The notes beneath the pieces are model-generated. The model was not told the origin of the DNA and searched no databases. It saw only the letters and a program-made list of their open reading frames with translations. A program made the position numbers and the translations under genes. Positions 1 through 17,200 of a DNA stretch of 41,498 nucleotides are shown piece after piece. Every line of letters starts with the position of its first letter. The stretch's first letter is position 1. This DNA is from an uncultured Verrucomicrobia subdivision 3 bacterium (GTDB lineage: Bacteria > Verrucomicrobiota > Verrucomicrobiia > Limisphaerales > UBA11358), in contig CAINLR010000122.1 in assembly GCA_903850425.1 (NCBI GenBank), forward strand, positions 1 to 41,498, written 5' to 3'.

Positions 1-1232
1 CGCGACACCGCGACGTAAGCCTGTCCCGGCTCACGCGCGGCGCGGATGTCCAGAAACGCCGCGTCCAACGTCAGCCCTTGCGCCTTGTGGATCGTCATCG
101 CCCACGCCAGCCGCAGCGGGAACTGGCTGAAGGTTGCCGAATCGTCGTCCTGCTGGTCATAGCGCCAGGTGAACCGCTCGACGTAAATCTCGGCACCGGT
201 CTTGGCCTTCACCAGCACCGCGCCCGGCGTGACGTCCAACACCGTGCCCAACTGCCCGTTGACGAAGAGCGGATTTTGCGACCCCGGCTCGGTCTTGTTG
301 ACGGTGAACATGACCAGCGCCCCCGGCTTGAGTTGCAGGGTTTGCGGCGTCAGCAGATTTTTTGTGAGAAATTCCCGCTGATGGTCAGGCCCGGATTGCT
401 GCGCCTCCAAAACCGTTTCGTCGCCCGGCAGATCGGAAAGCTGGAAATGATTCCACTTGTCCACTTGGACGTTGTGAGTAAAAAGCCGCGTCATCGCCGA
501 CGGCGGGTTGCTCCGCACCCGCGCTTGCAGAATGCGGGCCGTGTCGCCCCACACGCGACCGACACGAAAATCCGCCAGCGCACGGACAAAGCCCGGATCA
601 TCCTGACGCCGCACGCGTTCCAGGACGAACGTGCGAAACTCCGCCGCCGCCCACGCGGGCGATTGAAACGCCCAATCATAACGCTCCGTTTCAGATTTCC
701 GCACCGGTGGCAGTTGCAGGAAATCGCCGGTGGCGATGACTTGGCACCCGCCAAAAGGCACCTCGCGACCACGCAGCCGGCGAAACAGAAATTCGACAAA
801 CTCGAATTGCCGACCCGGCAGCATGGAGATTTCATCAATCACCAGCACTTCGCAGCGGCGCACGCGATTGAACCCGGCCTTGATGGACGGACGCGGGTCG
901 CGTTGCAGTTGCGCGAAGTAATCTTCGTTCGACTGTCCGGCAGCAGGACCAATCAGCATCCCGCAGAAACGGTGAATCGTCATGCCGCCTACGTTCAGCG
1001 CCGCCACGCCGGTCGGCGCGGTGACACTGACGCGGCGCGGACACTCCGCGATAAACTCGCGGAGTTGCGTGGACTTGCCGGTGCCGCCCGCGCCGGTGAG
1101 AAAAACATTCCCCCCGGCTTTTGCCGACGCATGGAATAAATTTTCCGGCGTCAGCACGGCGTCAGCCAGCTTTTCGTAATCCGCGTCCGACATCATCGGC
1201 AGCGGCGGTTCAGATAATGATTCCGAGTGCAT
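1..1232 (-). CDS. PIF1-like 5'-3' DNA helicase, C-terminus cut by window edge
   Basis: The minus-strand frame is open from 1232 to the window edge, about 410 codons. It shows the PIF1/RecD-like superfamily 1B pattern: Walker A GAGGTGKST near residue 48, then TAPTGVAA, Walker B VIDEISML, the GDFLQLPPV motif, and near the edge the TIHKAQG and AYVAVSR helicase motifs. Such enzymes unwind DNA 5' to 3' using ATP. The ATG at 1232 overlaps the end of the upstream exonuclease gene by 23 bases and has AAGG about 9 bases before it; an ATG at 1196 is the alternative. It is the last visible gene of a coupled minus-strand set (exonuclease, SSB-like, nuclease), which suggests replication or recombination of the mobile element. 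Family assignment is firm; the exact role is inferred. Confidence 0.9.
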   Translation of the reverse strand, partial: MHSESLSEPPLPMMSDADYEKLADAVLTPENLFHASAKAGGNVFLTGAGGTGKSTQLREFIAECPRRVSVTAPTGVAALNVGGMTIHRFCGMLIGPAAGQSNEDYFAQLQRDPRPSIKAGFNRVRRCEVLVIDEISMLPGRQFEFVEFLFRRLRGREVPFGGCQVIATGDFLQLPPVRKSETERYDWAFQSPAWAAAEFRTFVLERVRRQDDPGFVRALADFRVGRVWGDTARILQARVRSNPPSAMTRLFTHNVQVDKWNHFQLSDLPGDETVLEAQQSGPDHQREFLTKNLLTPQTLQLKPGALVMFTVNKTEPGSQNPLFVNGQLGTVLDVTPGAVLVKAKTGAEIYVERFTWRYDQQDDDSATFSQFPLRLAWAMTIHKAQGLTLDAAFLDIRAAREPGQAYVAVS

Positions 1233-1890
1233 CAGCAACCTTGGCGGTGAGTTGAATGTCGTTGTGCAGATACGCTTCCGCCTTCGGGCGGTCGTTAATC
1301 CACAGTTCCGCGAAGGCTTTGCCATCGCCGTTTTTCGCTCCCACGCCGAGGTGGCGCGCGATGGTGTCCAGACTCCCGCGCGCTTGGCGGTCGCCAAGCT
1401 GCCACGCGTCGCGGAGGTCAACCAACTGGTCGCCCCAATAACGGCCGCGCCGCAGCCCGAACGGCACCTTGATGCGATGCTTCCACGACCGCCGAAAAAG
1501 AAAGGGCAGATCAAAGTTAAAGATGTTGAATCCCAGCATTGGATTCATACGCCCCATCTCGCCCCGCGACGCCTCCCAAAATTCCGTCAGCGTCCGCGCC
1601 TCATCATCATGGCCGATGATGAAAAATTTATTCGTTTCCAAGTCGAGCATCCCGATGGCGACGACCCGGCCCGTGAGCGGGTCGAGCGCCGCCTTGTCGA
1701 AAAAGTCGCGGCGATGATTCGTCTCGGCTTCGGCAATCTTCTCCGCAATTTTCGCGGGATCTTTCAGGTTGCCCGTTTTAACTTCCGCCGGGTCGAACGG
1801 TGGGAGTAGCGCTGATAATTCGCTTTCCGCCAGAGGCCCGGTTTCCACGTCAAATACAATGGTCTGCATAAAATATTTTTTGGTTTGCAT
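1210..1890 (-). CDS. PolB-like 3'-5' exonuclease (DEDDy, RNase H fold)
   Basis: This 226-residue protein matches the predicted 3'-5' exonucleases related to the exonuclease domain of family B DNA polymerases. The motifs are FDVET near the N-terminus (D and E of motif I), FNIFNFDLPFL (motif II Asp) and YLHND near the C-terminus, the YxxxD of DEDDy enzymes. The length suits a stand-alone exonuclease domain. The ATG at 1890 is used here; a second Met eight codons later, just before the first beta strand, is equally possible. Its end overlaps the helicase start, so the two are probably translated together. Expected activity is metal-dependent removal of 3' nucleotides from DNA in the cytoplasm. 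The family is clear; the substrate is not. Confidence 0.85.
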   Translation of the reverse strand: MQTKKYFMQTIVFDVETGPLAESELSALLPPFDPAEVKTGNLKDPAKIAEKIAEAETNHRRDFFDKAALDPLTGRVVAIGMLDLETNKFFIIGHDDEARTLTEFWEASRGEMGRMNPMLGFNIFNFDLPFLFRRSWKHRIKVPFGLRRGRYWGDQLVDLRDAWQLGDRQARGSLDTIARHLGVGAKNGDGKAFAELWINDRPKAEAYLHNDIQLTAKVADALGIII

Positions 1891-1961
1891 GGAGGGACGA
1901 AATGCGTCCCTCCATGCGGTTGTTTTGGTTTCATTGCCTATGGGTGCAGGCTTCGCCTGCC

Positions 1962-2684
1962 TCAGTAGGGCACGTCGTCGTCCGCCGGTTTCGCCGCTTG
2001 CGCGGCCTGCCAGGATTCCAGCGCGGCAATGAGCCGCTTGTCATCCGCCGTCGGCTTGGCGTTCGCCTTCGCTGTCGGCAGCCAGTTCGCCACCAGCGCG
2101 CCAACCTGTTCCGGCGAGAGGTCGCGGACTTCCAGCCCCTTGCATTTGCCGACATGGATTTTCGTCGCGCCCAGATCGGCGCTCGTGTCGCTCGCCGGTT
2201 CAGCGCGGCGATAGCCGCCACCTTGCGCGCCGGCCCCGTCCTTCGGCGGACGGTCCTTCATGCGGACGAACTTGCCGGAGGGCTTCAACGGCTCCGCCGA
2301 CTTGTCCGGCGTGATCAACGCGATGTTGGCGTAAACTTCGCCTTCGCTGTGTTCGTGGATGACCGTGAGGTGCGCCGTGCGGCCCAGCATTTCCTCCGTG
2401 TCGAACGTGGCGGTTTCCGCCGCCGTCAGTTCGCGGCCCATCCATTTGCGGAGAAACGGCCGCAAGGCCGAGTTCTCGTGATACGACGGCGTGAACGGTG
2501 CCGACCACACGCACCAGCGCGAGCCGTCATCCTTCGTTTCGCCGATTTCAAACACGAACCGGAATTTTTCTTTCGGCCCGTATTGGGTCTGCACCGTTTT
2601 GAGGGGGGTGACATCCACGCAGACCGCCGACCCGGTGTATTCCGGGCAGGGTTGGAAGTTCCCGCTGTTGGTTTTGATTTTCAT
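1962..2684 (-). CDS. Phage-type ssDNA-binding-like protein with SSB-like acidic tail
   Basis: The protein has 240 residues counted from the ATG at 2684; the open frame extends further upstream, but that part is antisense to the nuclease gene and unlikely to be used. I do not recognise the body by a named family. The last residues are DDDVPY, very close to the DDDIPF tip by which bacterial SSB recruits partner proteins, preceded by an Ala/Lys-rich linker. The start codon overlaps the stop of the upstream nuclease in an ATGA, so the two are translationally coupled. With helicase, exonuclease and resolvase beside it, a single-strand-binding role is the best inference. A recombination mediator is an alternative. 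Confidence 0.65.
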   Translation of the reverse strand: MKIKTNSGNFQPCPEYTGSAVCVDVTPLKTVQTQYGPKEKFRFVFEIGETKDDGSRWCVWSAPFTPSYHENSALRPFLRKWMGRELTAAETATFDTEEMLGRTAHLTVIHEHSEGEVYANIALITPDKSAEPLKPSGKFVRMKDRPPKDGAGAQGGGYRRAEPASDTSADLGATKIHVGKCKGLEVRDLSPEQVGALVANWLPTAKANAKPTADDKRLIAALESWQAAQAAKPADDDVPY

Positions 2685-3100
2685 GATGATTGCTCTTGTT
2701 GCTCTGTTTTGTTGTTTGATTCCCCGTGTTCGGAACCGTGCGCCACCGGCGCATGGCCCTGGAGCGGAAGCTCCCCACGGAGAAAATTGAAGAAGGTTTC
2801 GGCGCGCATGGTGATCAGCCAGGGAGCGTGATTGCGGCGGTGGGCCACGACCCAAGGTTTCTTGTGGCCCGCCGGTGCTACCGGCCCGCAATCGCGTTCG
2901 GCTTGAGCGCAGGCATCGGCAAGATTCAGATTTTGCACCCGCTTCACCTCGACGTGCAGCCACGCCAGCGCGTCGCTGACCACGTCGGGAGAATCCGGCG
3001 AACCGCTGAATTGCTGCCCGCGACGGGCATCAAATCCATGCTCGCGCAGCAGCGCGGCAAATTCGCGTTCGCCCACCTTGCCTTTGCGCCGGGAGTTCAT
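2681..3100 (-). CDS. Holliday-junction-resolvase-like PDDEXK nuclease
   Basis: This 139-residue protein begins with KGKVGEREFAALLREHGF, followed by SPDVV and then LHVEVKRV. The order Glu, Asp, Glu-x-Lys is that of the PDDEXK nuclease fold as seen in archaeal Hjc and phage resolvase-like proteins. Later NHAPWLITM fits the conserved core strand of the same phage family. The C-terminal 25 residues are rich in Gln, Ser and Asn and look disordered. Its start overlaps the stop of the small membrane protein by ATGA and its stop overlaps the next start in the same way. Expected job: cutting branched DNA during element replication or recombination. The exact substrate is inferred. Confidence 0.75.
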   Translation of the reverse strand: MNSRRKGKVGEREFAALLREHGFDARRGQQFSGSPDSPDVVSDALAWLHVEVKRVQNLNLADACAQAERDCGPVAPAGHKKPWVVAHRRNHAPWLITMRAETFFNFLRGELPLQGHAPVAHGSEHGESNNKTEQQEQSS

Positions 3101-3276
3101 TTGGCGACTCCCCCCTGGTTATTTTTGGAATCCTTGTTTTTACGGGCCTGCTTGAACTGCTGATACCAGTCCGTAAACAGGTCCGTCAGGATGTAGGTGA
3201 TACCGATCAGGCCCATCCACAGCGCGTAGATAAAGACGACCGTGCCGGCCAGGTTGATGAGGTTGTGTAGTGTCAT
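3097..3276 (-). CDS. Small single-pass membrane protein
   Basis: A 59-residue frame starts at the ATG at 3276 and ends in a TGA that overlaps the nuclease start codon (ATGA). One hydrophobic stretch, about residues 10-33 (GTVVFIYALWMGLIGITYIL), is followed by an acidic/aromatic patch and a Lys/Asn-rich hydrophilic tail. It is probably an inner-membrane protein with a cytoplasmic C-terminus. I recognise no family. The tight coupling on its downstream side argues that it is real. Small membrane proteins at this position in phage-like operons sometimes anchor replication complexes, but nothing in the sequence shows that here. Confidence 0.6.
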   Translation of the reverse strand: MTLHNLINLAGTVVFIYALWMGLIGITYILTDLFTDWYQQFKQARKNKDSKNNQGGVAK

Positions 3277-4175: not shown

Positions 4176-6029
4176 TTATTGCGTGGTCAGGTAATAATGC
4201 CCGTTTCCCGCCAACACGATCAATTCACTGCAAAGTTTCTCAAGGTTTTTATTTCCTAGAAAGTATTGTTGAATGCGGAGGTTGAACTTGGAAGATTCCG
4301 GCAATGCAGACATTCTCGCATTCGCCCGCACATACGGATCAATTTTTGTTTCCAAGTGCTGTGCTCGCGCTTCATCGTAGGCTTCAGTTGTCACCAGATA
4401 TTTAATGCAAAAACGGGCCTTCTTCCGTTTTTCAAGATTGTAGAGCACCTCCCCCAAACGGACTTCCTTGAAATCATTATGCCAGCGCAGTCGCCCATGG
4501 GAACCCGACAAAGACACTTGCGGTATTTTTGGTTTGCTGTCCCCGTTTTTTTTCTCCGGCGTTGCCACTGCCGGCAAAACCGTCGCGGAATTGGTGTCGT
4601 TAAGGATTCGCACCAGACAATCATCGGGCAGCGTTCGTCCGAGCAAATCGTCAGCGTGGCGTCGCAGAAGAATGACAGCAGCGTCGCGCACCTCGGCGGC
4701 ATGGCGTTGATAAAGACCGAGAATCTTGCTGAGGGCGCTGTCCGCATTGTCATCGGCATAGGGTAAGGCGTCCGCCACAACGTCATATTTTTCCAAAAGT
4801 TGGTCGGCAGTCTTGATGGTTCGAAATTCGTTGGCGCGTTCAAAATACGACACCATCATGATCCGCTCTTTTTCCTCCAGAATGGATTCAGTGACGATGT
4901 TCACTTCATATTGACCGACCGGGTCATGTTTCTCCGCCTCCGTCGCAATCATGGCAACGCGCCGGTCCACACACTGCGAACAAGTGCCGCAATGGGTCAA
5001 TTCGCTCGTTCGTTCCCAGGTGCTGGCGCAGCTACGAGAGGGTTTGATCATGCCTTCGCAACCGTGATCCACGATGATTTTGATGATTTCGCCTTTCGTC
5101 TTCCAACGGAAAGGATTTTCCACGGTGAATTTTTTCCCGCTGATTTCCGAAAAAAGGTCCTGAAAACCGCGCAGGACTTTGGGATGCGTCGTCCGGGTGG
5201 CGCGCGAACCGATGATTTGTTCGCAGGGTGGCAGGTTCAGGCTCACCACGCCGTTCTCGTAAAAGCGGATGCCATCCAAACCGACCATCTGGGCAACGGT
5301 TGCCGCCAGTGAAGCATAAAGAAACGAGCGGACCCGTTGCGTTGTCTCGGTCCCGATCTCGCTATCCTTGTGAATCCGAACCGGAACATACAGCGGTGCC
5401 AGTTCTTCCGCCCGTTTTGCAAGCTGTTGCGCGATGTCTTCCCGCAACGATTCGAATTTCAGGGTTGGCCGATGCCCCACTAGCACCGCCCGGTGCTTTT
5501 CATCCAGTGCTTCCGTGATGGCCCCGGCCAGCGAATCCAGTCCGCCGGAATAAAGCACCACCTGCTTGGGTTGGTAACTTTTGCCGGCTCCGTTGGTAAA
5601 ATGAAGATACTGCTGGTATTCCGGTGCCCCGTGCGCGGGGTAAAAGTGAAACTCGTAATAATCATCCGACAAATACGACACCGTGTCCGTCAGGAATTCT
5701 TTGACCTTCGGCGATTGCCATAATTCGGGCACCCGGACGGGTATGTGAAAAATGAGCGACCGGCGCCAGCCCGCACCAAAGGTTTCCACCTCCTTGCCGC
5801 CACGTCTCACGGCTTGATCCGCCGTATAAACATAGGAGGCAATTTCAATCAGGTCCAGATAGGTGGGGGTGATGTCCTGCCAGAATTTTTTGTCCAGATC
5901 ACTGACGGGCAGCGTCACGTTGATGCCATCTTTGGTTTTCCAGAGATTCAATTTCAAAATCTCTTTCGACTGATTCGGTATGCCGGGGGGATTGACCCCG
6001 CTGCAAAGGATGATGCGCTCGTGTCCCAT
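4176..6029 (-). CDS. QueC-like PP-loop ATPase, defence-type (QatC/Cap9-like)
   Basis: The product has 617 residues. The PP-loop SGGLDS at 161-166 and the zinc Cys set C334, C347, C350, C353 (CGTCSQC) are those of QueC, the enzyme that makes 7-cyano-7-deazaguanine. True QueC is about 230 residues. This protein has an extra N-terminal domain of about 150 residues and a C-terminal region of about 240 residues after the Cys cluster, so it is not a housekeeping QueC. Defence systems use such enlarged QueC relatives: QatC in QatABCD and Cap9 in some CBASS operons. No other queuosine gene is nearby. It follows its small partner gene by 3 bases, so they form one operon. A nucleobase or amidation chemistry is inferred from the family; the substrate is unknown. 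Confidence 0.75.
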   Translation of the reverse strand: MGHERIILCSGVNPPGIPNQSKEILKLNLWKTKDGINVTLPVSDLDKKFWQDITPTYLDLIEIASYVYTADQAVRRGGKEVETFGAGWRRSLIFHIPVRVPELWQSPKVKEFLTDTVSYLSDDYYEFHFYPAHGAPEYQQYLHFTNGAGKSYQPKQVVLYSGGLDSLAGAITEALDEKHRAVLVGHRPTLKFESLREDIAQQLAKRAEELAPLYVPVRIHKDSEIGTETTQRVRSFLYASLAATVAQMVGLDGIRFYENGVVSLNLPPCEQIIGSRATRTTHPKVLRGFQDLFSEISGKKFTVENPFRWKTKGEIIKIIVDHGCEGMIKPSRSCASTWERTSELTHCGTCSQCVDRRVAMIATEAEKHDPVGQYEVNIVTESILEEKERIMMVSYFERANEFRTIKTADQLLEKYDVVADALPYADDNADSALSKILGLYQRHAAEVRDAAVILLRRHADDLLGRTLPDDCLVRILNDTNSATVLPAVATPEKKNGDSKPKIPQVSLSGSHGRLRWHNDFKEVRLGEVLYNLEKRKKARFCIKYLVTTEAYDEARAQHLETKIDPYVRANARMSALPESSKFNLRIQQYFLGNKNLEKLCSELIVLAGNGHYYLTTQ

Positions 6030-6032
6030 AGT

Positions 6033-6812
6033 TTAATTCGCCCGCGCCCCCAGTTCCTTCCGCATTTTCTCCACCCCATACCACATGAACTTTTCGGCGG
6101 ATTCTCGGGTGATGTCCGGGCCATTCTCTCGGAATTGTTTTTTCAGCCACCCGGAAAAATAAGTATCCACCCGCTCGGATGCCTCTTGGCAATGCAGGTT
6201 CATGCCGGCTTTGAATTGGCCGAGGTTATTCAGCGTGGCGAAGGGCTTTCCCGTGCCCACTTGCCCGCCGATTTTCTTCGTCAGGAAATAATTCAGAAAC
6301 TTGTTGGTGAGGGTGCTGAAGTATTTCTGTCCCAACGCCGAGAAATTTTTTGGGCCTTTTAATTTGCGCAGCGTCGCCGCCAGATGGTCATGTGTCTTGG
6401 AAAAAAGTGATGGCCCGCCTTCTGTCGCCATGTAGTGAGTCACCGAGGCCACCAGTGCACCCTTCGCCATCTCGCCCCAATCACTGCGCTGGTTTTTCCC
6501 GGCCATCCGCCGGTTCACTGCCTGTGCGAGGGCGGATGATAATTCCGCCAGCGACCCGCTTTCCCCCAATTGAACCCCGACCGAAGCCAGATGTGCCACG
6601 GGATCCTTTTTGGTTCCGGCCACGGCCAGTTGCACCATCAAGTGCGCTGCCTCGCGAAAACCCGCGTCATCGGCCACCGTGGTCAGCGCCACATTCGCCG
6701 CTTTCCAGGTCCGCTCCGCTATCGTGGCGTTGTCGGCCTTCGCTTCAATCAGGCCGACCACGTCCGTCCACTTGCGCGTTTTCGGCAGTGTGTTCGGGTT
6801 TAAATGTCCCAT
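6033..6812 (-). CDS. Helical partner of the QueC-like protein (QatB-like candidate)
   Basis: About 259 residues from the ATG at 6812, which gives an N-terminus MGHLNPNTLPKTRKW; an upstream extension to 6977 is open but reads like noncoding sequence. The protein is rich in Ala, Leu and Lys and predicted helical by eye, with no signal peptide, membrane segment or catalytic motif that I recognise. It lies 3 bases before the QueC-like gene. In QatABCD a similar-sized helical protein, QatB, is encoded just before QatC. The Met-Gly start would leave an N-terminal glycine after Met removal, which matters if the QueC-like enzyme modifies its partner there. Homology to QatB is suggested by position and character only. 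Confidence 0.6.
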   Translation of the reverse strand: MGHLNPNTLPKTRKWTDVVGLIEAKADNATIAERTWKAANVALTTVADDAGFREAAHLMVQLAVAGTKKDPVAHLASVGVQLGESGSLAELSSALAQAVNRRMAGKNQRSDWGEMAKGALVASVTHYMATEGGPSLFSKTHDHLAATLRKLKGPKNFSALGQKYFSTLTNKFLNYFLTKKIGGQVGTGKPFATLNNLGQFKAGMNLHCQEASERVDTYFSGWLKKQFRENGPDITRESAEKFMWYGVEKMRKELGARAN

Positions 6813-7066: not shown

Positions 7067-8332
7067 TTAGGTGGTGACGGCGTTGGGGCTTTTGCGTTGG
7101 AGGAGTTGCTGGAGGTAGCGGCTCTCCTGATAGGGCACACGTGTCTGCCAACACTTCCAGAGCACCCGGATCCATTTGAAAGCGAGTGCTCGGAGGACAG
7201 CATGATGCTTCGTGCCTTTGGCGATCATGCGCTGGTAATAAACTTTGGCCCAGGCCGAGAAGACAACCGTCTGGCCAGCCCACTCGACAAAGGTTTGTCG
7301 CAGGAAGGTGGGTGCCAACCAGCGCCAGTGGGTCCAGACTTGGTTGCCGCTTTTCTCCCGCACCGGAGCCACCCCAGCGAGCTTCTGAAGGCTTGCTGGA
7401 TCAGCATGAAGGCCGCGCAAGGTTCCGAAGGCAACACACAGGCGGGGTGCCAACTGGGCACCAGCACCGGGCAGGTCACGAAAGAGATAGGCTTCGGGAT
7501 GGGCGGCGAAAACCGTTTTGATTTCTTCCTCAACCACAGGCAGGTGTTTGCGAAAGGCCCGCAATTGATCCACCAGCAAACGTAAGTGCAGCACCGACAC
7601 CTGGACCAGTTCATAATCCTGAAGCAATACCACCGCCTCTTTGATCCGTTTGATGCGCTCCTCAAGGATTTCAGGCCGGCGGAGGTGATGCGCGTAATAG
7701 AAGTGCTTGATGGTGCTGGGCCGGGCCGCCTTGAGCGTCACGAGGTCGGGCCAGCGATCCAGGAAATCAACGGCCAGATCACTGTTTAGTCCGCCCACCA
7801 GTTCCAGAGCCTGTGGATAATAGTCTTTGAGCAGGCTGGTCAACTGGTTGAGCAACTGCGTGCGCCGGTCCACCAGATGCCGGCGGACTTCCACCAAGCG
7901 AGCGAGTTTTTGCGTTTGCGGGTCTTGGGCTTCCAGCGGACGGAGTTTATGCGCGTGATCCCGCACCAGTTCCAGCAGCACATGAGCGTCCGGCAGATCA
8001 TCCTTGGCTCCGGAAGGCGTGAAGGCCGTCCGATAACGGGCGCTGGTGACGGGGTTGACGGGATAAATGGTCAACCAAGGGTATTGGAGCAGCCCGTGAA
8101 TCACGGCCCCACGACTGGCTTCAATCGCCAGTGAGACCGGACGTCCGCCATAGCGTTTGGCCAAATCATTCAGCCACTGATGGAGTGACTCCGCCGAGTG
8201 TTTCAACGTGCCATCCTCGGCATGACCGGAACGATCCTGCAAGGCAAAGGCGTGAGTTTCATGACCCCAATCCAGACCAATCCACGCTTGCGGGGTCACA
8301 GGCTGCCTGTCGTTGTTGGTGTTTTTATTCAT
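7067..8332 (-). CDS. IS110-family transposase (bridge-RNA-guided recombinase)
   Basis: The product has 421 residues. The N-terminal RuvC-like DEDD domain shows IGLDWG (D21), AIEAS (E71) and KDDLPDA (D111/D112, D115). After a coiled-coil middle region, the C-terminal Transposase_20 domain shows LPGAGAQLAPRL and KLAGVAPVREKSGN, where S328 sits in the position of the catalytic serine. Length and motif order are normal, so the gene appears intact. IS110 enzymes recombine DNA using a bridge RNA encoded in the element; the long noncoding stretch is upstream of this gene, as in the IS110 (not IS1111) group. Confidence 0.95.
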   Translation of the reverse strand: MNKNTNNDRQPVTPQAWIGLDWGHETHAFALQDRSGHAEDGTLKHSAESLHQWLNDLAKRYGGRPVSLAIEASRGAVIHGLLQYPWLTIYPVNPVTSARYRTAFTPSGAKDDLPDAHVLLELVRDHAHKLRPLEAQDPQTQKLARLVEVRRHLVDRRTQLLNQLTSLLKDYYPQALELVGGLNSDLAVDFLDRWPDLVTLKAARPSTIKHFYYAHHLRRPEILEERIKRIKEAVVLLQDYELVQVSVLHLRLLVDQLRAFRKHLPVVEEEIKTVFAAHPEAYLFRDLPGAGAQLAPRLCVAFGTLRGLHADPASLQKLAGVAPVREKSGNQVWTHWRWLAPTFLRQTFVEWAGQTVVFSAWAKVYYQRMIAKGTKHHAVLRALAFKWIRVLWKCWQTRVPYQESRYLQQLLQRKSPNAVTT

Positions 8333-8336
8333 GATG

Positions 8337-8500
8337 CGTTAGTTTAGTTGTGGACGCGGGGCGCAAGCCGTATAGACGAGACGTGAGTCGTCGGCACCTG
8401 AGTATGCGTATCCGAGTCCGGGTTCGAGCTCCGGTCGAAGACTTGTCCATAGCTCGTCCAGCGAGCGGCCAATGTTATTCGTGCCGGAGCCCGAACTAAA
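8337..8500 (-). ncRNA. Candidate IS110 bridge RNA
   Basis: The stretch upstream of the transposase has several pairings. A 13-base stem, 12 of 13 paired, joins 8422-8434 (GTTCGAGCTCCGG) to 8484-8496 (CCGGAGCCCGAAC). Within it lies a 5-base hairpin (8452-8456 with 8462-8466), and another hairpin (8375-8379 with 8388-8392) lies toward the transposase. Nested stems with unpaired internal loops are what a bridge RNA needs for target and donor recognition. Transcript ends and loop assignments cannot be fixed by eye. Confidence 0.45.
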
Positions 8501-8649
8501 TTTATCACTGGATTGCAATTCGGCCATTTTTCGCGACGGCGTTGCTCACCGTCTGTGGTCGAGTGACCTTGAAAGCTCTCCCCCAGCCGTTGAACAACGC
8601 CGGATAGGCTATACAGCCATTGTCCCACCCCCCATGTCAAGCTGGCCGC

Positions 8650-8931
8650 ATGAAAATAAAAAGAACCTGTCGGCTCTCGCTCTCCGCGTTCAACTTCCAA
8701 CCCACCACCATCGCGCGGTTCGGCCCCGCCCGGCTCGTGAAAAATTCCGATGGCCGTCACGAACTTATCGGCGGCACGGCGGAACACCACGCCGCCGCGC
8801 GCGAGTGGTGTTCGCTGTTTGCGCCGGAGGTGGTTTTCAAATCCGGTGGCACGTCCGGCACGCACGCCGCAAAAACCGCAGAATTTTACTCTCGCCGCGT
8901 CGGGCATTCTCGCGCATCTTTTTTCGCTTAA
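8650..8931 (+). CDS. Small hypothetical protein before hsdM
   Basis: A 93-residue frame from the ATG at 8650. The middle reads [30 protein letters not shown], then SLFAPEVVF, which has protein-like amino-acid usage. I seem to recognise the DG-HELIGGT..HHAAREW pattern from small hypothetical proteins of this phylum, but I cannot name a family. It is on the same strand as hsdM and ends about 70 bases before it. The larger frame that runs through this region into hsdM from 8472 is not needed. It could have lost upstream sequence when the IS110 element entered. Confidence 0.4.
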
Positions 8932-8999
8932 ATGATTTCACGCCGAACATCCACGCCACCGGCCACCGGTTCAAGTCCGTTTATCCAAAACCAATCCGC

Positions 9000-10742
9000 A
9001 TGAGCGACCCCAATCTTTCATCGTTCATCTGGTCGGTTGCCGATCTCCTGCGCGGCGATTACCGGCAATCAGAATATGGCAAGGTCATCTTGCCGTTCTG
9101 CGTCCTGCGCCGGCTCGATTGCGTGTTGGAAGCCACCAAGCCCGCCGTGCTTGCCGAACTCGCCAAGCGCACCGCCGCCAAGGTGAATCCCGAACCGTTT
9201 TTGCTCCGCAAGAGCGGCACGCTTTTTTACAACACGTCGCCGCTCGACTTGAAAAAGCTCATGGGCGATCAGGATCACATCGGCGAAAATCTGCGCGCCT
9301 ACCTCCAGGCATTTTCGCCGGCAGTGCGGGATATTTTTGAAAGTTTCGAGTTTCACATCCAGATTGACCGGCTCCAGAAAGCCAGCCTGCTATATCTCGT
9401 CACGGAAAAATTCGCCAACATTGACCTGCATCCCGAAGTTGTCAGCAACAACCAGATGGGCGCGGTGTTCGAGGAACTCATCCGCAAATTTGCCGAGCTT
9501 TCCAATGAAACAGCCGGGGAACATTTCACCCCGCGCGACGCCATCCGGCTCATGGTGAATCTCCTTTTCATTGAGGACGACGACGCCTTGACCAAGCCCG
9601 GCGTCGTGCGGTCGCTCTACGATCCCACTGCCGGCACGGGCGGTATGTTGAGCGTCGCGGGCGAACATCTTGCCAGCTTGAATCCCGGTGCCCGGCTCGT
9701 CATGTATGGGCAGGAGTTGAATCCAGAATCCTACGCCATTTGCAAGGCCGACATGCTCATCAAGGGGCAGGACATCGCCAACATTATTTTCGGCAACACG
9801 CTTTCCGCCGATGGTCTGCATGGGAAAACTTTTGACTACGGCCTCTCCAATCCGCCGTTCGGCGTGGAATGGAAAAAAATTGAAAAGGAAATCCGCAAGG
9901 AATTTGCCGAGCAGGGTTTCAATGGCCGGTTCGGTCCCGGCCTGCCGCGCGTCAGCGATGGCTCGCTGCTGTTTTTGCTGCATTTGATTTCCAAGATGCG
10001 CCCGGCCAAGGATGGCGGTAGCCGGTTCGGCATCGTGCTCAACGGCTCGCCGTTGTTCACCGGCGGCGCGGGCAGCGGCGAGAGTGAAATCCGCCGCTAC
10101 GTTTTGGAAAACGACTTGGTCGAAGCCATCATCGGCCTGCCGACCGATATGTTTTACAACACCGGCATCAGCACCTACGTCTGGATTGTCAGCAACCGGA
10201 AGCCGGAAGCGCGCAAGGGTAAAGTGCAGTTGATTGATGCCAGCGGTTTCTGGCAAAAGATGCGGAAAAGTCTAGGCAGCAAACGCAAGGAATTGAGTCC
10301 CGAACACATTGAGGAAATCACCCGGATTTTCGGCAGCTTCAAAAACGTGAAGAAGGCAGGCGTGCCGATCAGCCGCATTTTCAAGAACGAGGATTTCGGC
10401 TACCGCACCATCACCGTCGAGCGGCCAGAGCGCGACGCCAAGGGCAAAATCGTTCTCGGCACCAAGGGCAAGGGCAAAGACCAGCCGATGCCGGATTCAA
10501 AATTGCGCGACACCGAGGACGTGCCGTTGAACGAGGACGTGGAAACGTATTTCAAGCGCGAAGTGGTTCCCCACGCGCCGGATGCGTGGATTGACCACGA
10601 TAAAACCCAGGTCGGCTATGAAATTCCGTTCAACCGGCACTTCTACGTTTTCCAGCCGCCGCGCCCATTGAGCGAGATTGACGCCGAGTTGAAAGGCGTG
10701 ACCGACCGCATTTTGAAAATGATTGGAGGCCTGACGCAATGA
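9000..10742 (+). CDS. hsdM: Type I restriction-modification DNA methyltransferase subunit
   Basis: The product has 580 residues from the ATG at 9000. The N-terminal helical domain of HsdM (about 1-140) is followed by the methyltransferase domain: [10 protein letters not shown] and [13 protein letters not shown], then the SAM-binding motif [10 protein letters not shown] from residue 208 and the catalytic NPPF at 284-287. It makes N6-methyladenine at the site chosen by HsdS and is required for restriction too. The stop overlaps the hsdS start by ATGA. An in-frame extension to 8472 is ignored because homology begins at [15 protein letters not shown]. No frame defect is seen, so the subunit should be functional. 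Confidence 0.95.
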
Positions 10743-12040
10743 GCTTCCCACGCCATCCCAAATACAAGGACAGCGGCGTAGAATGGCTCGGCCAAGTGCC
10801 GGAGCATTGGGACGTGAAGCGCATCGGCTACTACTTCGTTGAACGGCGCGAAAAAGTCAGCGACAAGGATTTCCCGGCGCTGTCTGTCACCAAAAACGGA
10901 ATTGTTCCCCAGCTCGACACCGCCGCAAAATCAGATGACGGCGACAATCGGAAAAAAGTTCTCAAGGGCGACTTCGTAATTAACAGCCGTTCCGACAGGA
11001 AAGGTTCATCCGGCGCGTCCGACCTCGATGGTTCAGTCTCTTTGATTTGCACCGTCATGCGTCCGCAAGAGCAGGTTCACACACCGTTCGTGCATCATCT
11101 GCTACGCAGCCAGCCGTTTCAGGAGGAATTTTACCGCAACGGCAAGGGTATTGTCGCTGACCTTTGGAGCACGAATTATTCCGAAATGCGGAACATCCTG
11201 CTCGGTATGCCGCCGTTGCCAGAGCAAAGCCGCATCGCCGCATTTCTGGATCACGAGACGGCGAAGATTGATGCGTTGGTGGCGGAACAACAGCGACTGA
11301 TGGCGCTGCTGAAAGAGAAACGCCAGTCCATCATCGCCCACGCCGTCACCAAAGGCTTGAATCCCAAAGCCGCCTTGAAACCCTCTGGCATCGAATGGCT
11401 CGGCGATATCCCAGCGCATTGGAAGGTTGGCAAATGCGGATTTTATATTTCAATTCTTTCTGGCTTTGCATTTCCGTCCACAGGTTTCACGGACGACGAA
11501 AACGACACGAAATTACTGCGCGGAATCAACGTCGGTGTTCAGCAACTCAAATGGGATGAAACAGTTTATTGGCGGCGTGTTGAAGGCGACGGTTTGGATA
11601 TTTACGAAATGAAAGCGGGCGATCTGGTCATCGGCATGGACCGGCCATTGATTAGCGAAGGCATCCGAGTAGCGAAGGTTAAGGAAAGCGATTTGCCATG
11701 TCTCTTGTTGCAACGCGTCGCTTCGTTGAAAGCCGGCAAGCTGATGAATGCCGATTATTTGTTGGGGTTGCTATCGTCCGAAATGTTCGTGGCGCATTTT
11801 TCGCCTGACACAACCGGCGTGAGTGTTCCGCACATCAGCCCGGAGCAGATAAATAATTTTGTCATTCCAGTGCCGCCAATTTCCGAGCAGCAAGAAATCA
11901 CAAGTTTCGTCAGCACCGAAACCACCAAGTTCAACACGCTCACCGCCGAAGCCCAGCGCGCGATTGACCTGCTGCAAGAACGCCGGACCGCCTTAATTTC
12001 CGCCGCCGTCACCGGCCAAATTGATGTCCGCCACCAGTAG
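10739..12040 (+). CDS. hsdS: Type I restriction-modification specificity subunit
   Basis: The product has 433 residues. Two target-recognition domains are each introduced by the same phrase ([17 protein letters not shown] at 12-28 and [15 protein letters not shown] in the middle). Each is followed by a conserved coiled-coil spacer: [22 protein letters not shown] with a second helix ending TKGLNP, and [18 protein letters not shown] ending [11 protein letters not shown]. This is the full two-TRD layout, so it should read a bipartite DNA site. Translationally coupled to hsdM. The TRDs normally differ between strains, so the recognition sequence cannot be guessed. Confidence 0.95.
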
Positions 12041-12050
12041 AGGATTTGCC

Positions 12051-13496
12051 ATGTTTATCCAAAAAATCATTTTAACCAACGTCCGGCAATTCGCTGACGT
12101 TTCCTTTCCATTCCAACCCGGCTTCAATCTGATTGTAGGTGAAAATGGAGCCGGCAAAACCACGCTGCTGCGTTCGTTGCTGGCAGTTTTGGGCAGCACC
12201 AAGCAAACCGGTCGTCGCCCGGCAATGAGTGATGATGATATTCGTCTGCGCACCCAAGAGTTAAAGATTACAGCAGATATTTGGGATGATGCCTCAGGCA
12301 GACAAAATTTATTTTACGAAAAGCAAATTTTTCAGCGTGCCCGCCGCCCGCGCCACGGTCGCGATCCTATCGTAATTTATTTCGGTTCCAACGAAGCCGC
12401 CACTAGCAGCTTTATCACCCGCAAGATTAGGCGGTATGGTGCCGCAGCACCCGCGCGAGGCACGACGGCGGAGGAGTATTTGTTTAATGCGGAGCGCGCG
12501 ATGAGCATGGATGCCGCACCGGCGGAACGGTTTGGAAACAGTGATGGCATTCGGGAATTTGTCATCGCGGCGATTACAAATATCTCGGAAAGATTCAAAG
12601 ATTTCCATTGGCGTTTTGAGCCCTACGATTGTGTAATCAACTCCGAAATTGATTGGACGCCAACGAAGGATGCTCACGAAGATCATCGTCGAACACTTGC
12701 GGCTGCAATAATGCGTTATTGTCAGGAGACGCGAAATCCGTTTGAACGGATTGACCAGCGCAGTGTGACGCTCGAATCTGGCGGCACTATCTTCGGCGAG
12801 CAATCCTCGAAACCGGTTATGCCAAATTTTCGGGATTTATTGCAACGGACGGACATCAGTAGAGACGTTTTAGGCTTTCTGGACAAATGTAGGGCTGAAA
12901 TCCGTCTCACGCCCCGAATAGTTGTTCACAGCTTGGATGGAGAGTTTTTATTGGGGCAACTTTCGGATGGCGAGCAGCGGTTGTTTTCACTTTTTGTTGA
13001 TATTGCCCGTCGCCTTTCGCTTTTTGGAGAATCAAGGCAGATACGGGATGTTGCGGCCATCATCCTGATTGACGAAATTGACGTGCATTTGCATCCAAAA
13101 TGGCAGCGCAAGATTGTGCCAGCGTTGGAAGAATTATTTCCCGCCTGCCAGTTCATCGCCACAACTCATTCGCCGTTCGTAATTCAGGCCGTAGATCGCC
13201 GCAAGATTCTCCGACCAGACAAGCGAGGTGAATTTCGTTTAGATCAAGAGGCCAATACCATAGAAGACATCGTGGAGGACATCCAGGGTATTACCATGCC
13301 ACAGCGTAGCCAGCGCGCTGAAAAGTTGAGTCAAACTGCTCAACGATATTTCACGTTGCTCCGGCAAAAGGACGTTCCCAAGCAGGAATTGGCGGAAGCG
13401 GAAAAAGAATATCGGCTGGCGAGCGAGCCATTCACATCTAACCCGGCTCTCCACGCACTGCTAAAAGTGGAACAGATGGAGGCGCGAAAAATATGA
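12051..13496 (+). CDS. ptuA: PtuA-like ABC-type ATPase (Septu)
   Basis: About 481 residues from the ATG at 12051, just after hsdS. The ABC/SMC-like ATPase has Walker [10 protein letters not shown] at 30-38, a long helical middle, the signature LSDGEQ near 304, Walker [14 protein letters not shown] near 342 and the His switch ATTHSPF. The DEID/HLHP combination and the following HNH gene match PtuA of the Septu anti-phage system rather than an OLD nuclease, since no Toprim domain follows. The stop overlaps the HNH gene by ATGA. In Septu the ATPase forms a complex that controls the nuclease. Here the pair is embedded in a type I RM operon. Confidence 0.8.
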
Positions 13497-14179
13497 GGCC
13501 AGTGAAACGCGGAGACGCGCCAAACAGTTATTCAAGGTATCAGGAAGCCATAGGTGATTTGGAAGGTTGCCTTGGTCGCTATTGCAGTTATTGCGAGCGC
13601 AGGTTTCAAGTCAGTTTGGCCGTGGAGCATGTGGTTCCGAAAAGTTTGGATCGCACTCGCGAACTGGATTGGAATAATTTTTTGCTGGGTTGCGTAAATT
13701 GCAATTCGGTAAAAGGCGCGAAACCCACCAACGAGATGGATTTTTTCTGGCCTGACCGGGATAATACTTTGCTCGCTATTGACTACAAACCGGGCGGATT
13801 GGTCGAAGTTAAAGCCACCCTCACGGATGACCAGAAACAGAAAGCTGAAAGGCTGATTGATCTCGTCGGCTTGGATCGTCACCCCGGCCAGCCGGCTGCA
13901 AAGCAACCCGCTGAAAGGGATAAACGCTACATGGATCGTGAGGAGGTTTGGAAACTCGCACAGTCAAAACGCGAGGCTTTGGCTCGAAATAATAACGATG
14001 ATTTCCGAATAGTCATTGCCGACCTCGCCAAAGCCGAAGGTTTTTTTAGCGTTTGGATGACGGTATTTCATGACGAGCCCGATATGCGTCGTCGTTTTTT
14101 TGAGGGACTTATCGGAACGGCAAAAAATTGTTTTGATGCGAACTGGAATTGTGTTGCCCGGCCGGGAGGGCAACTTTAA
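13493..14179 (+). CDS. ptuB: PtuB-like HNH endonuclease (Septu)
   Basis: The product has 228 residues. The HNH zinc-finger nuclease core is C31-x2-C34 (YCSYCERR), VEHVVPKS with H46, an Asn in the WNNFLLGC segment, and C67-x2-C70 (CVNCNSVKG). This is the layout of PtuB and of the HNH proteins paired with ABC ATPases in retron-type and Septu systems. The C-terminal 110 residues are helical and charged, probably the ATPase-binding part. Start and ptuA stop share ATGA. Expected activity is DNA cleavage upon phage infection, held in check by PtuA. All nuclease residues are present. Confidence 0.8.
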
Positions 14180-14205
14180 CAAAACCGATTGCGAAGGGAT
14201 TTGAA

Positions 14206-17200
14206 ATGAGTCTGCATAAAGAAATCACGTTCGAGGCGGAGATTTGCCAGCACCTTGCGGCCAATGGCTGGCTGTATGCCGAGGGCGACGCGGCCACCTA
14301 CGACCGGGCGCTCGCGCTCTATCCCGCCGACGTGCTCGCCTGGGTGCAGGCCACCCAGCCGCAGGTATGGGAAATTCTGGTAAAAAACCACGGCGACAAG
14401 GCCGGTGAAACCTTGCTCGCTCGGTTGCGCGACCAGCTTGACCAGCGCGGCACGCTGGACGTGTTGCGGCATGGAATTGAACTGCTTGGCTTGAAACAGC
14501 CGTTGCCCATGGCGCAGTTCAAACCGGCGCTCGCCATCAATCCCGACATTCTCGCCCGCTACGCCGCGAACCGGCTGCGTGTCGTGCGGCAGGTGAAGTA
14601 TTCATTGCACAACGAGAACAGCATTGATGTCGTGCTGTTCCTCAATGGCATCCCGGTCGCCACGTCGGAACTGAAAACGGATTTCACTCAAAGCATCACC
14701 GACGCCGTTGATCAATATCGGTTTGACCGCAATCCCCGGCCCAAGGGACAGCCGCCGGAACCGCTGCTGTCGTTTCCCAACGGCGCGCTGGTGCATTTCG
14801 CCGTCAGCAACAGCGAGGTGCAAATGCTGACCAAGTTGGCCGGTGCGGCCTCGCACTTCCTGCCGTTCAACTTGGGCAACGACGGCGGCGCGGGCAATCC
14901 GGTGAACCCGGCGGGCGGCCACCGCACGGCATATCTTTGGGAACAAGTTTGGGCGCGCGAAAGCTGGCTGGAAATTTTAGGCCGCTATCTCGTCATCGTC
15001 CGCGACAAGAAAAAACAGATCACCGAGTATGTTTTCCCGCGTTACCATCAGCTCGACGTGACACGGAAACTTTTGTCCGCCGTGTTGCAAGACGGGCCGG
15101 GCGGCAAGTATCTCATCCAGCACTCCGCCGGTTCAGGCAAAACCAAATCCATCGCCTGGACCGCGCATTTTCTCGCGGAGTTGCACGACGCGCAAAAACA
15201 AAAAGTGTTCGACACGGTGCTCGTGGTATCAGATCGCACCGTGATTGATTCGCAGCTTCAGGAAGCACTGTTTGATTTTCAGCGCACGAGCGGCGTCGTG
15301 GCGACCATCACCGGCAATGATGGCAGCAAAAGCAAGGAATTGGCCGAGGCGTTGGACGGCACCAAAAAAATTGTGGTTTGCACAATCCAGACTTTCCCCT
15401 TTGCGCTGGATGCCGTGCGCAAACTGGCCGCAACGAAAGGCAAACGCTTTGCCGTGATTGCCGATGAAGCCCACAGTTCGCAGACCGGCGAGGCGGCGGC
15501 GAAATTGAAGGCGGTATTGACGCCCGAAGAATTGGCGGAGTTGAACGACGGCGGCGAGGTCAGCATGGACGATGTTCTAGCCGCTGAAATGACCGCTCGC
15601 GCCGAAGATCGCGGAATAACCTTCGTCGCGTTCACGGCCACGCCCAAAAACAAGACGATTGAGATTTTTGGCACGCGGCCCGACCCCAAGCGCAAACCGG
15701 CCAAGGATAACGTGCCGTTCCCGTTTCATGTGTATTCCATGCGGCAGGCCATCGAGGAAAAATTCATCCTCGACGTGCTGAAAAACTACACGCCCTACAA
15801 GCTGGCGTTCAAGCTGGCGCACAACGGCAAGGACTACGACGAGAAAACCGTCGAACGCGCTGCTGCCATGAAGGGCATCATGGGCTGGGTGCGGCTGCAT
15901 CCCTACAACATCGCGCAGAAGGTTGAGGTCGTGGTGGAACATTTCCGCGAATTTGTCGCCCCGCTGCTGTCCGGCCAAGCCAAGGCGATGGTGGTTGTCG
16001 GCAGCCGTCTCGAAGCCGTGCGCTGGCAGCTTGCGATGGATAAATACATCAAGGCACACGGCTACAAAATCGGCACGCTCGTCGCCTTTTCCGGCGAAGT
16101 GAACGACAAGGAATCCGGGCCGGATGGATTCACGGAGAACAGCAAGGTTTTGAATCCGAACCTCAAAGGCCGCGACATCCGCGAAGCGTTCAAAGGCGGT
16201 GAATATCAGATTTTGCTGGTCGCCAACAAATTTCAGACCGGCTTTGATCAGCCGTTGCTCTGCGGAATGTATGTGGACAAGCGGCTGGCGGGGATTCAGG
16301 CCGTGCAGACGCTTTCACGTTTGAACCGCGCCCATCCCGGCAAAGACACCACCTATGTCATTGATTTCGTGAATGACCCGGCGGAAGTTCTCGCTTCATT
16401 CAAGACGTATCACACCACGGCGGAGCTTTCGGCCACCACCGACCCGGATCTTGTCTATAATTTGCGTTCCAAGCTGGACGCCGCCGGCCATTACGACGAT
16501 TTCGAGGTTGATCGCGTCGTGGCGGTCGAATTGAAAGCGGACGCGACGCAGGCCGAACTTTTGAAGGCGCTTGAGCCGGTGGTTGACCGGCTGATGAAAG
16601 ATTACAAGGCGGCGCAGGCAGCGTTGAAGCTGGCGAAGGAAAAGAACGATGAAGCCGCCACCAAGACCGCCCAGGACGAGTTGAACGCCCTGATTTTGTT
16701 CAAGAGTGACATGGGCGCATTCATCCGGCTCTACACGTTCCTGTCGCAGATTTTTGACTACGGCAACACCGCACTGGAAAAGCGCGCCATTTTCTACAAA
16801 CGCCTGCTGCCGTTGCTGGAATTTGGCCGCGAACGCGAAGGCATAGACCTGTCGAAAGTCGTTCTCACGCATCACAACCTGAAAAACAAAGGTCGTCAGC
16901 CCATGCCGATTTATGCCGGCAAAACGCCCTTGCTGGAGCCGATCACCGAAGCGGGCAGCGGCGAGTTGCATGACAAGGAAAAAGCCATGCTGAATGAAAT
17001 CATTCAGAAGGTGAACGACCTTTTCCAAGGCGAACTCACCGACCAGGACAAGCTGGTTTATGTGAACAACGTAATTAAAGGCAAGTTGCTGGAATCGGAA
17101 ACACTCCGGCAGCAGGCGGCGAACAACAGCAAGGAGCAGTTCGCCAATTCGCCCGACCTGAAAAACGAATTGTTGAACGCCATCATGGGCGCGCTGGACG

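What the first reader, a model, noticed from the sequence alone, without database searches (positions are those of the whole stretch)
4176..6812. Two-gene QueC-like/QatB-like unit in which both proteins start Met-Gly
The enlarged QueC relative has an intact PP-loop and zinc Cys, no queuosine genes nearby, and a small helical partner 3 bases upstream. QatABCD also pairs QatB with QatC, but here no QatA ATPase or TatD nuclease is present: the left neighbours are the helicase set and the right neighbour is an IS110 element. I recall recent reports that defence QueC-like enzymes attach a deazaguanine to the N-terminal glycine of a partner; the partner here begins MGHLNP, which fits. It may be a minimal or truncated Qat system, or a new one with its own C-terminal domain of about 240 residues.
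Basis: partly seen in the sequence, partly recalled or inferred. Interest (0 to 1): 0.8.

Follow-up and report, generated by a model that had tools for sequence, protein, structure and literature searches.

The report
Widespread two-gene relative of Qat defence
This is a stand-alone, two-gene cousin of the core of the bacterial Qat anti-phage system, found on many mobile elements; some of its hosts seem unable to make the deazaguanine that such enzymes are thought to attach, which suggests that another chemical group is used.

Summary
The pair is real and intact: a 617-aa QueC-like enzyme (4176-6029, minus) and a 259-aa helical partner (6033-6812, minus). The enzyme is a QatC (residues 5-453, HHalign E 5.9e-48) plus an extra C-terminal module. 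No family model recognises the partner, but its predicted structure matches the QatB crystal structure (Z 12.4; next unrelated row 5.3) at 6% identity. It is not a truncated operon: of 168 related loci examined, 160 carry the partner directly upstream, none shows qatD, one a weak qatA-like match. All 155 partner ORFs with a readable start have Gly2 (152 MGH); the enzyme's own Met-Gly start is accidental. The catalytic site is nearly invariant, while the C-terminal module is swapped (winged helix, DpnII-type nuclease, others unassigned). Neighbours are phage or mobile-element genes; the window's helicase-like module is 85% identical in DNA to one beside a pair only 47%/37% identical in protein. 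Ten of 42 carrier genomes tested lack detectable QueC, QueD and QueE, so 7-carboxy-7-deazaguanine is unlikely to be the obligate donor. Verdict: a new, widespread subtype of QatBC, probably anti-phage, with an unidentified N-terminal glycine modification. Nothing was tested at the bench.

The parts
6033..6812 (-). QatB-like partner, 259 aa, all-helical, MGHLNPNTLPKTRKW start
   Evidence: ORF; AF2 model pLDDT 91; VIA-align Z 12.4 to 9y01_A; HHalign P 3.6e-5 to a QatB profile
6768..6812 (-). conserved N-terminal motif, family form MGHxRLGxLPxTRxW (residues 1-15)
   Evidence: 155 of 155 readable partner ORFs have Gly2, 152 of them MGH; column counts over 132 distinct partners
4176..6029 (-). QatC-like enzyme, 617 aa
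   Evidence: ORF; PADLOC QatC 2.5e-52; NCBIfam QatC 205.7 bits, cut-off 280; solved QatC 9vlk_A 9.9e-31
4665..6029 (-). QatC core, residues 1 to about 455
   Evidence: HHalign of A1 with a QatC profile, residues 5-453, E 5.9e-48
5532..5549 (-). PP-loop SGGLDS, residues 161-166
   Evidence: S161, G162, D165, S166 in 166 of 166 aligned rows, G163 in 165 of 166
5181..5198 (-). TRTTHP, residues 278-283, holding the QatC-specific Thr278/Thr280 pair
   Evidence: alignment to solved QatC; conservation; role of the Thr pair from PMC13279940
4971..5030 (-). zinc-site cysteines C334, C347, C350, C353
   Evidence: each Cys in 167 of 167 aligned rows
4179..4583 (-). variable C-terminal module, residues 483-617 (linker, then a possible winged-helix fold)
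   Evidence: module type shared only with L034 among 168 loci; AF2 block means of this part below pLDDT 70
7067..8332 (-). IS110 transposase upstream of the pair; not part of the system
   Evidence: PF01548 5.3e-27
1..3101 (-). conserved mobile-element backbone (helicase-like, exonuclease, small genes) beside the cassette
   Evidence: 85% DNA identity over 3126 bp to L037

Best explanation
A two-gene QatBC-type module, probably an anti-phage cassette carried by phages and other mobile elements. The enzyme is a full QatC: a PP-loop ATP-using enzyme with QatC's own active site. The partner is a remote QatB. Proposed working: the start methionine is removed, and the exposed Gly2 of the partner's short flexible tail enters the enzyme's active site. 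ATP activates the carboxylate of a small donor, which is joined to the glycine amine. The modified partner is then the active defence protein or its regulator. The exchangeable C-terminal module of the enzyme (winged helix, or a DpnII-type nuclease; the commonest type has no assigned fold) ties the complex to DNA or senses invading DNA. Shown here by computation: the homology of the enzyme, the partner's predicted QatB fold, Gly2 conservation, catalytic-site conservation, module exchange, absence of qatA/qatD in the DNA held. Inferred from QatABCD and type IV CBASS: complex formation, Gly2 as acceptor, defence. Inferred from host gene content: the donor is not obligately 7-carboxy-7-deazaguanine (CDG).
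For: Enzyme: QatC profile E 5.9e-48 over residues 5-453; solved QatC 9vlk_A 9.9e-31; catalytic columns near invariant, with Thr278/Thr280 aligning to those of P. aeruginosa QatC. Partner: model pLDDT 91, ten helices; 9y01_A (QatB-QatC entry; chain numbering 64-287 fits QatB) Z 12.4, 210 residues aligned, rmsd 4.1, next unrelated row 5.3; HHalign P 3.6e-5 against 0.21 and 0.033 for two control comparisons; canonical QatBs are the first non-family rows, weak, when the family HMM is run on 21 reference proteins. Pairing in 160 of 168 loci, directly upstream and on the same strand. Gly2 in 155 of 155. qatD 0 of 168, qatA 1 weak of 168, while the same references find both in 6 of 8 QatC-type loci. 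Published: QatB plus QatC alone protect against lambda; QatB G2D and QatC active-site mutants lose defence (PMC13279940, Results read). Module exchange. Cassette divergent beside a conserved backbone.
Against: No functional data for any member. No Pfam, PADLOC, NCBIfam or PHROGs model gives the partner a significant match. Its match to QatB is structural, rests on a prediction, has a Z in a range the tool warns about for helical proteins, and was not significant in plain Foldseek or by sequence profile. All five long-form enzymes scanned with NCBIfam fall below the QatC cut-off. The partner's tail is about 10 residues against 65 in P. aeruginosa QatB, so it is not shown that Gly2 can reach the active site. 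The start is MGH, not MGTS. One weak qatA-like match exists (L078). Defence is inferred from kinship and mobile-element context only.
Confidence: 0.72

Rival explanations
1. CDG-dependent version: the enzyme attaches 7-carboxy-7-deazaguanine to the partner's Gly2, as Cap9 does in type IV CBASS, drawing CDG from the host queuosine pathway.
For: Cap9 precedent and the proposal for QatC in PMC13279940. The window's own genome has QueD (3.8e-34) and a QueE-like gene (9e-20). Most carriers tested (29 of 42) have a QueE-type match.
Against: 10 of 42 carrier genomes have no QueC over cut-off, no QueD and no QueE by three models, although TGT is found in all ten; five of these ten are isolates by record title. 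Enzymes of 12 QueE-less carriers keep the catalytic residues, apart from Ser for Thr at 278 or 280 in 2 rows at each site. The CDG-binding Tyr/Asp are Thr/Thr, as in QatC. CDG uptake, an unknown QueE, or CDG supplied by an infecting phage is not excluded.
Confidence: 0.3
2. A QatABCD operon that lost qatA and qatD in this genome, perhaps through the IS110 insertion.
For: An IS110 transposase ORF ends about 250 bp upstream of the partner. One relative is cut by an IS (L028).
Against: Relatives in several phyla have the same two-gene form. Long-form enzymes and QatABCD QatCs fall on two sides of a branch with SH-aLRT 96. Start motif, tail length and C-terminal module all differ.
Confidence: 0.04
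3. Not defence: a mobile-element regulator, in which the enzyme with its DNA-binding module controls element genes or modifies a protein for the element's own benefit.
For: Some C-terminal modules are or resemble winged helix or HTH, and the pair lies among recombinase-like and replication-like genes (named by eye). PHROGs files the enzyme family under 'moron, auxiliary metabolic gene and host takeover'.
Against: QatBC kin are defensive (PMC13279940). The cassette is divergent or replaced beside a conserved backbone, as is usual for defence genes. The module can be a DpnII-MboI-type nuclease (L029).
Confidence: 0.2

Closest known systems
QatB-QatC core of the qatABCD anti-phage system
   Same: QatC core aligned over nearly its whole length, PP-loop, Thr/Thr in place of Tyr/Asp, zinc Cys; partner with a QatB-like predicted fold, Gly2 and a Pro/Trp-containing start; enzyme gene directly after the partner gene.
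   Different: No qatA or qatD; MGH instead of MGTS; tail of about 10 residues instead of 65 in P. aeruginosa QatB; extra, exchangeable C-terminal module; below the NCBIfam QatC cut-off and unseen by the QatB model.
Type IV CBASS Cap9 with its CD-NTase
   Same: QueC-fold enzyme encoded beside a partner with N-terminal Met-Gly.
   Different: Partner is QatB-like, not a CD-NTase; enzyme is 617 aa rather than about 185 (PMC13329287); the CDG-recognising Tyr/Asp are missing.
Canonical QueC (TIGR00364)
   Same: Pfam PF06508 QueC is met (29.9 bits, cut-off 22); PP-loop and zinc site.
   Different: TIGR00364 score 16.9 against a cut-off of 150.3; Thr/Thr where QueC has Tyr/Asp.

Membership tests
qatABCD system | qatA (KAP ATPase) and qatD (TatD nuclease) in the operon | tested here: not met
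   Four reference QatA-position and four QatD proteins (L030-L033) against 168 loci: qatD 0, qatA 1 weak (L078, 25% over 261 aa); 106 loci have at least 3.3 kb upstream and 1.5 kb downstream of the enzyme. The same references find both genes in 6 of 8 QatC-type loci.
QatC (NF041925 equivalog) | score over the curated cut-off of 280 bits | tested here: not met
   Window 205.7; L044 223.6, L090 205.6, L034 214.6, L029 187.6; canonical L025 494.9.
QatC homology and active site | near full-length homology, SGGxDS, TxTTHP, zinc Cys | tested here: met
QatB (NF041924 equivalog) | score over the curated cut-off of 100 bits | tested here: not met
   No QatB match for the window partner at E up to 1 or for L044's at E up to 0.001; canonical L025 158.5.
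QatB fold | ten-helix QatB domain | tested here: met
   Predicted model with ten helices, Z 12.4 to 9y01_A, 210 residues aligned, next unrelated row 5.3; HHalign P 3.6e-5. A prediction, not a solved structure.
QatB N-terminus | MGTS start and long disordered tail | tested here: not met
   MGH start; tail of about 10 residues in the model. Gly2 itself is met.
N-terminal glycine conjugation (Cap9 type) | nucleobase adduct on Gly2 | not testable with these tools
   Needs intact mass; indirect gene-content test.
Type IV CBASS | CD-NTase partner and Tyr/Asp CDG pocket | tested here: not met
   Partner has a QatB-like predicted fold and no family match; Thr278/Thr280.
Canonical QueC | TIGR00364 over the cut-off | tested here: not met
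   16.9 against 150.3 bits; the broader Pfam PF06508 is met.

The most novel reading that the evidence does not exclude
The long-form QatC enzymes, and perhaps QatC enzymes in general, do not use deazaguanine. They attach a different, widely available carboxylate to the partner's N-terminal glycine: a new protein conjugation, in a two-gene defence module that takes its target specificity from an exchangeable DNA-binding or nuclease module.
Probability: 0.42. Interest if true: 0.85.

Novelty: new variant of a known kind. Interest (0 to 1): 0.66.

Why it matters
PMC13279940 states that what QatC catalyses, and how QatBC stops phages, are open questions (Discussion). This subtype is a minimal form already selected by nature (two genes, no QatA or QatD nearby), occurs in several phyla and in viral contigs, and keeps the catalytic site nearly invariant. 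Carriers without detectable CDG-making enzymes turn 'is the donor CDG?' into a simple genetic test. The exchangeable C-terminal modules suggest where specificity or output is encoded. The partner escapes every family model tried, so systems of this kind can be seen today only as an orphan QatC-like gene.

Tried and rejected
Single-sequence scan of genome contigs with the enzyme found no relative; an alignment query did. Partner against plasmids by tblastn: none. Phages by tblastn with the enzyme: 2 Listeria phage records, partial and distant, not followed. Plain Foldseek with the partner gave no match at E up to 0.001, and QatB is not among the 50 rows shown; VIA-align placed it first. A profile of the partner against PDB sequences did not find QatB; its best match was an SRP receptor at 0.0054, taken as chance. 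The C-terminal model's Foldseek search gave nothing usable, and its low-confidence half is not claimed as a fold. HHalign of the C-terminal fragment alone against QatC was negative (P 0.58), although the whole-enzyme profile aligns through residue 453; so the equivalence of residues 366-453 with QatC's extension is moderate. A PDB profile search with the largest module type gave only weak, scattered matches.

A recurrent third gene was sought among neighbours of 95 dereplicated loci. Apart from the partner, the recurring families looked like recombinase, replication and other mobile-element genes (named by eye); the commonest was in 35 loci and in mixed orientation. No obvious third component was seen. 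The first partner-start caller preferred MG-type starts. A reading by HMM alignment replaced it, but that HMM (A3) was itself built from starts called in the first way, so it is less biased rather than free of bias. It read 160 matches and 5 were set aside for unreadable starts (3 matched only beyond model position 20, 2 too short); 5 of the 152 MGH starts use GTG or TTG.

The unseen rest may include QatABCD-type enzymes. Three loci (L015, L016, L018) duplicate L035, L055, L077; 152 enzymes are distinct, and 7 of these could not be given a module type. The CDG test used 42 carriers: the five genomes from the phylum draw and 37 of the 80 genome-contig loci, picked by me. Four more (L086, L094, L097, L105) were searched with fewer models and are not in that count: TIGR04322 0 of 4, PTPS 3 of 4, TGT 4 of 4.
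Full report
Observation. The window carries two intact minus-strand genes. The partner runs from 6812 to 6033 (259 aa) and the enzyme from 6029 to 4176 (617 aa), with 3 bases between them. An IS110 transposase lies upstream. Downstream are an HTH_17 gene, small genes, a PolB-type 3'-5' exonuclease and a helicase-like ORF that runs off the contig (named by eye). In the window's genome (96% complete) the QueD, QueE-like and TGT matches lie on other contigs, and no QueC reaches its cut-off. The genome holds a second pair of the same kind on contig C103.

The enzyme is a QatC with an addition. PADLOC QatC matches at 2.5e-52 and two solved QatC sequences at 9.9e-31 and 2.7e-24. Pfam's broad QueC model is met (29.9 bits, cut-off 22). 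NCBIfam's QatC equivalog gives 205.7 bits, under its cut-off of 280. Profile against profile, residues 5-453 align with nearly all of QatC (E 5.9e-48). So the C-terminal extension of QatC, which binds QatB in the published structure, is probably present, and what is added is about 130-160 residues at the end. The C-terminal fragment alone did not align with QatC. The AF2 model of residues 366-617 is confident to about residue 475 and poor after that.

The partner is a remote QatB. Pfam, PADLOC, NCBIfam and PHROGs give nothing significant. The AF2 model, built on 78 rows, has pLDDT 91, ten helices and a low-confidence start, residues 1-8. PMC13279940 (Results read) describes QatB as ten helices with a disordered N-terminus. 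VIA-align puts the two QatB-QatC entries 9y01 and 9y02, chain A, first, at Z 12.4 and 12.1 over 210 and 204 residues, with the next row at 5.3. I take chain A as QatB from its numbering (64-287), which fits the paper's unresolved first 63 residues. The tool warns that helical proteins can reach such Z values by chance; the gap to the next row and the full coverage argue otherwise. HHalign gives P 3.6e-5 and probability 71 over 95 columns, against P 0.21 and 0.033 in two control comparisons. The aligned model range starts at residue 10 and the QatB range at 64. The partner therefore seems to lack most of QatB's long tail while keeping Gly2 and a Pro/Trp pattern (LPxTRxW here; Pro16 and Trp18 in QatB).

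Not a truncated operon. In a phylum-wide draw, 13 of 387 genomes matched. Five of these hold six long-form pairs, and none of the six loci shows qatA or qatD. Of the 8 QatC-type loci, 6 have qatA and qatD by the same references. Collection scans with an alignment reported 251 relatives in genome contigs and 128 in viral contigs, of which the best 80 of each were held. Over 168 loci (152 distinct enzymes), 160 have the partner on the same strand directly upstream. Of the 8 without, 5 end within 0.2 kb upstream of the enzyme, and 3 (L028, which an IS cuts, L050 and L091) have upstream DNA but no partner match. qatD: none of 168. qatA: one weak match. A pair on a Leptospira noguchii plasmid is among the 168.

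The glycine. Read by HMM alignment, 155 partner ORFs have a readable start and all 155 have Gly2: 152 MGH (5 of them with GTG or TTG as start codon), one each MGQ, MGN and MGT. The following residues are conserved as well (132 distinct partners). The enzyme's Met-Gly occurs only in the window (1 of 164 called starts) and is chance.

Catalytic site. In one search the SGGxDS positions, R232, R234, E258-N259-G260, R279, T281, H282, P283, T311 and the four Cys are nearly invariant. Position 278 is T in 150, S in 17 and A in 1 of 168 rows; position 280 is T in 163 and S in 5. The published work says that these residues replace the Tyr/Asp that hold CDG in Cap9 and QueC.

Exchangeable C-terminal module. 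After a core of about 480 residues the enzymes fall into one type with 102 loci, one with 38, and several small or single types (BLAST linkage); by distinct enzymes the two main types number 87 and 37. Over the Pfam cut-off are a DpnII-MboI nuclease in L029 (1.1e-10) and a Trans_reg_C winged helix in L166 (5.2e-07) and L178 (9.8e-11). Weak HTH matches occur in the second type, and its profile's best PDB matches include TcpP and response regulators beside designed proteins, all weak. The largest type has no assigned fold. The window's type is shared only with L034. On a tree of 68 rows the module labels need 8 changes when unrelated single types and outgroups are left out, and 17 with all ten labels (least possible 9; shuffled mean 39). 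The 10 QatABCD enzymes and 2 odd ones are separated from the 56 long forms by a branch with SH-aLRT 96. This was the quick method, with four long branches and nine rows of unusual composition flagged. Pairs with core identity up to about 55% can differ in module; none above 55% did.

Context. Eighty of the 168 loci come from viral contigs by construction. Recurrent neighbours look like serine recombinases, a DUF2924-like protein, helicases and other phage-type genes (families named by eye). The window's first 3.1 kb is 85% identical in DNA to L037, while the two pairs are 47% (enzyme, residues 4-501) and 37% (partner) identical in protein and differ in module type; against L034 the backbone pieces are 74-78% and the pair 45%/45%, with the same module type. 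The simplest reading is a cargo slot in which such cassettes are replaced.

The donor. In 42 carrier genomes, QueC is over its cut-off in 23 and a PTPS (QueD-type) protein occurs in 28 at E up to 1e-6. QueE is not found by TIGR04508 or TIGR03365 (E up to 1e-8) in 13, and TIGR04322 (E up to 1e-5) finds none in those 13. Ten genomes lack all three; all ten have TGT (in G407 as two pieces). Two of the ten are 94% and 88% complete (G206, G226); completeness of the other eight is not told. By record title five of the ten are isolates: Rubellimicrobium thermophilum, Roseisalinus antarcticus, Sneathiella sp. HT1-7, Aquamicrobium defluvii and Antarctobacter heliothermus; the Rubellimicrobium enzyme ends soon after the core. 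The active sites of 12 QueE-less carriers look like the rest, with Ser for Thr in 2 rows at 278 and 2 at 280. Lack of QueE is not rare in general: TIGR03365 rings in 8 of 14 control genomes. So the pair seems to spread regardless of CDG synthesis. Among the 8 QatC-type genomes, 7 have a PTPS and a TIGR03365 match (one marginal) and G095, with a full QatABCD operon, has neither. This argues that CDG is not an obligate donor. It does not show what the donor is, and the window's own host could make CDG.

Novelty. Searches of the held library for QatC+QatB, QueC with anti-phage and prophage, deazaguanylation, QatB/QatC with winged helix, qatABCD, QueC-like with serine recombinase, QueC/QatC/Cap9 with type IV CBASS, QatBC, and QatC or DUF2924 listed no paper whose title or abstract start points to this subtype; the last listing showed 30 of 38. 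In PMC13279940 I read Results, Discussion and one methods section, plus passages, and in PMC13329287 three results sections, plus passages; these parts do not describe it. The latter reports qatA near only 34.3% of its QatC cluster, so some of these proteins may lie unremarked in that cluster. bioRxiv and most subscription papers were not searchable, and supplements were not read.

Verdict. New, widespread variant of QatBC; probable anti-phage role; donor open, with indirect evidence against CDG.

Noticed in passing
window 8472-17331 +: A type I restriction-modification set (HsdM, HsdS, HsdR) with a Septu-like PtuA/PtuB pair (12021-13496, 13493-14179) nested between hsdS and hsdR.
   Followed up: partly
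window 17847-18959 -: Protein with weak PADLOC matches to LmuA and RTasMBL (2.7e-09, 1.4e-05) but no Pfam match at 0.001.
   Followed up: no
window 20716-22413 -: Phage-type integrase (PF00589, 1e-14), possibly of the same element.
   Followed up: no
L021 8059-10516: A third form: a 187-aa protein starting MGTS...PKTTSW, a 428-aa QatC-like enzyme and a 204-aa gene, with no qatA or qatD found.
   Followed up: partly
L020 6234-8344: QatC-like enzyme of 487 aa with a 216-aa upstream gene that has no Met-Gly start as called, and no qatA or qatD found.
   Followed up: no
L017 2236-5212: Second, divergent long-form pair in the window's own genome (43% enzyme identity, different C-terminal module type).
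   Followed up: partly
G000 (whole genome): QueD and QueE-like present, TGT present, but no QueC over its cut-off; how queuosine would be made is unclear.
   Followed up: no
L069 6989-7090: A second fragment resembling the first 34 residues of a partner, about 0.9 kb upstream of the enzyme gene.
   Followed up: no
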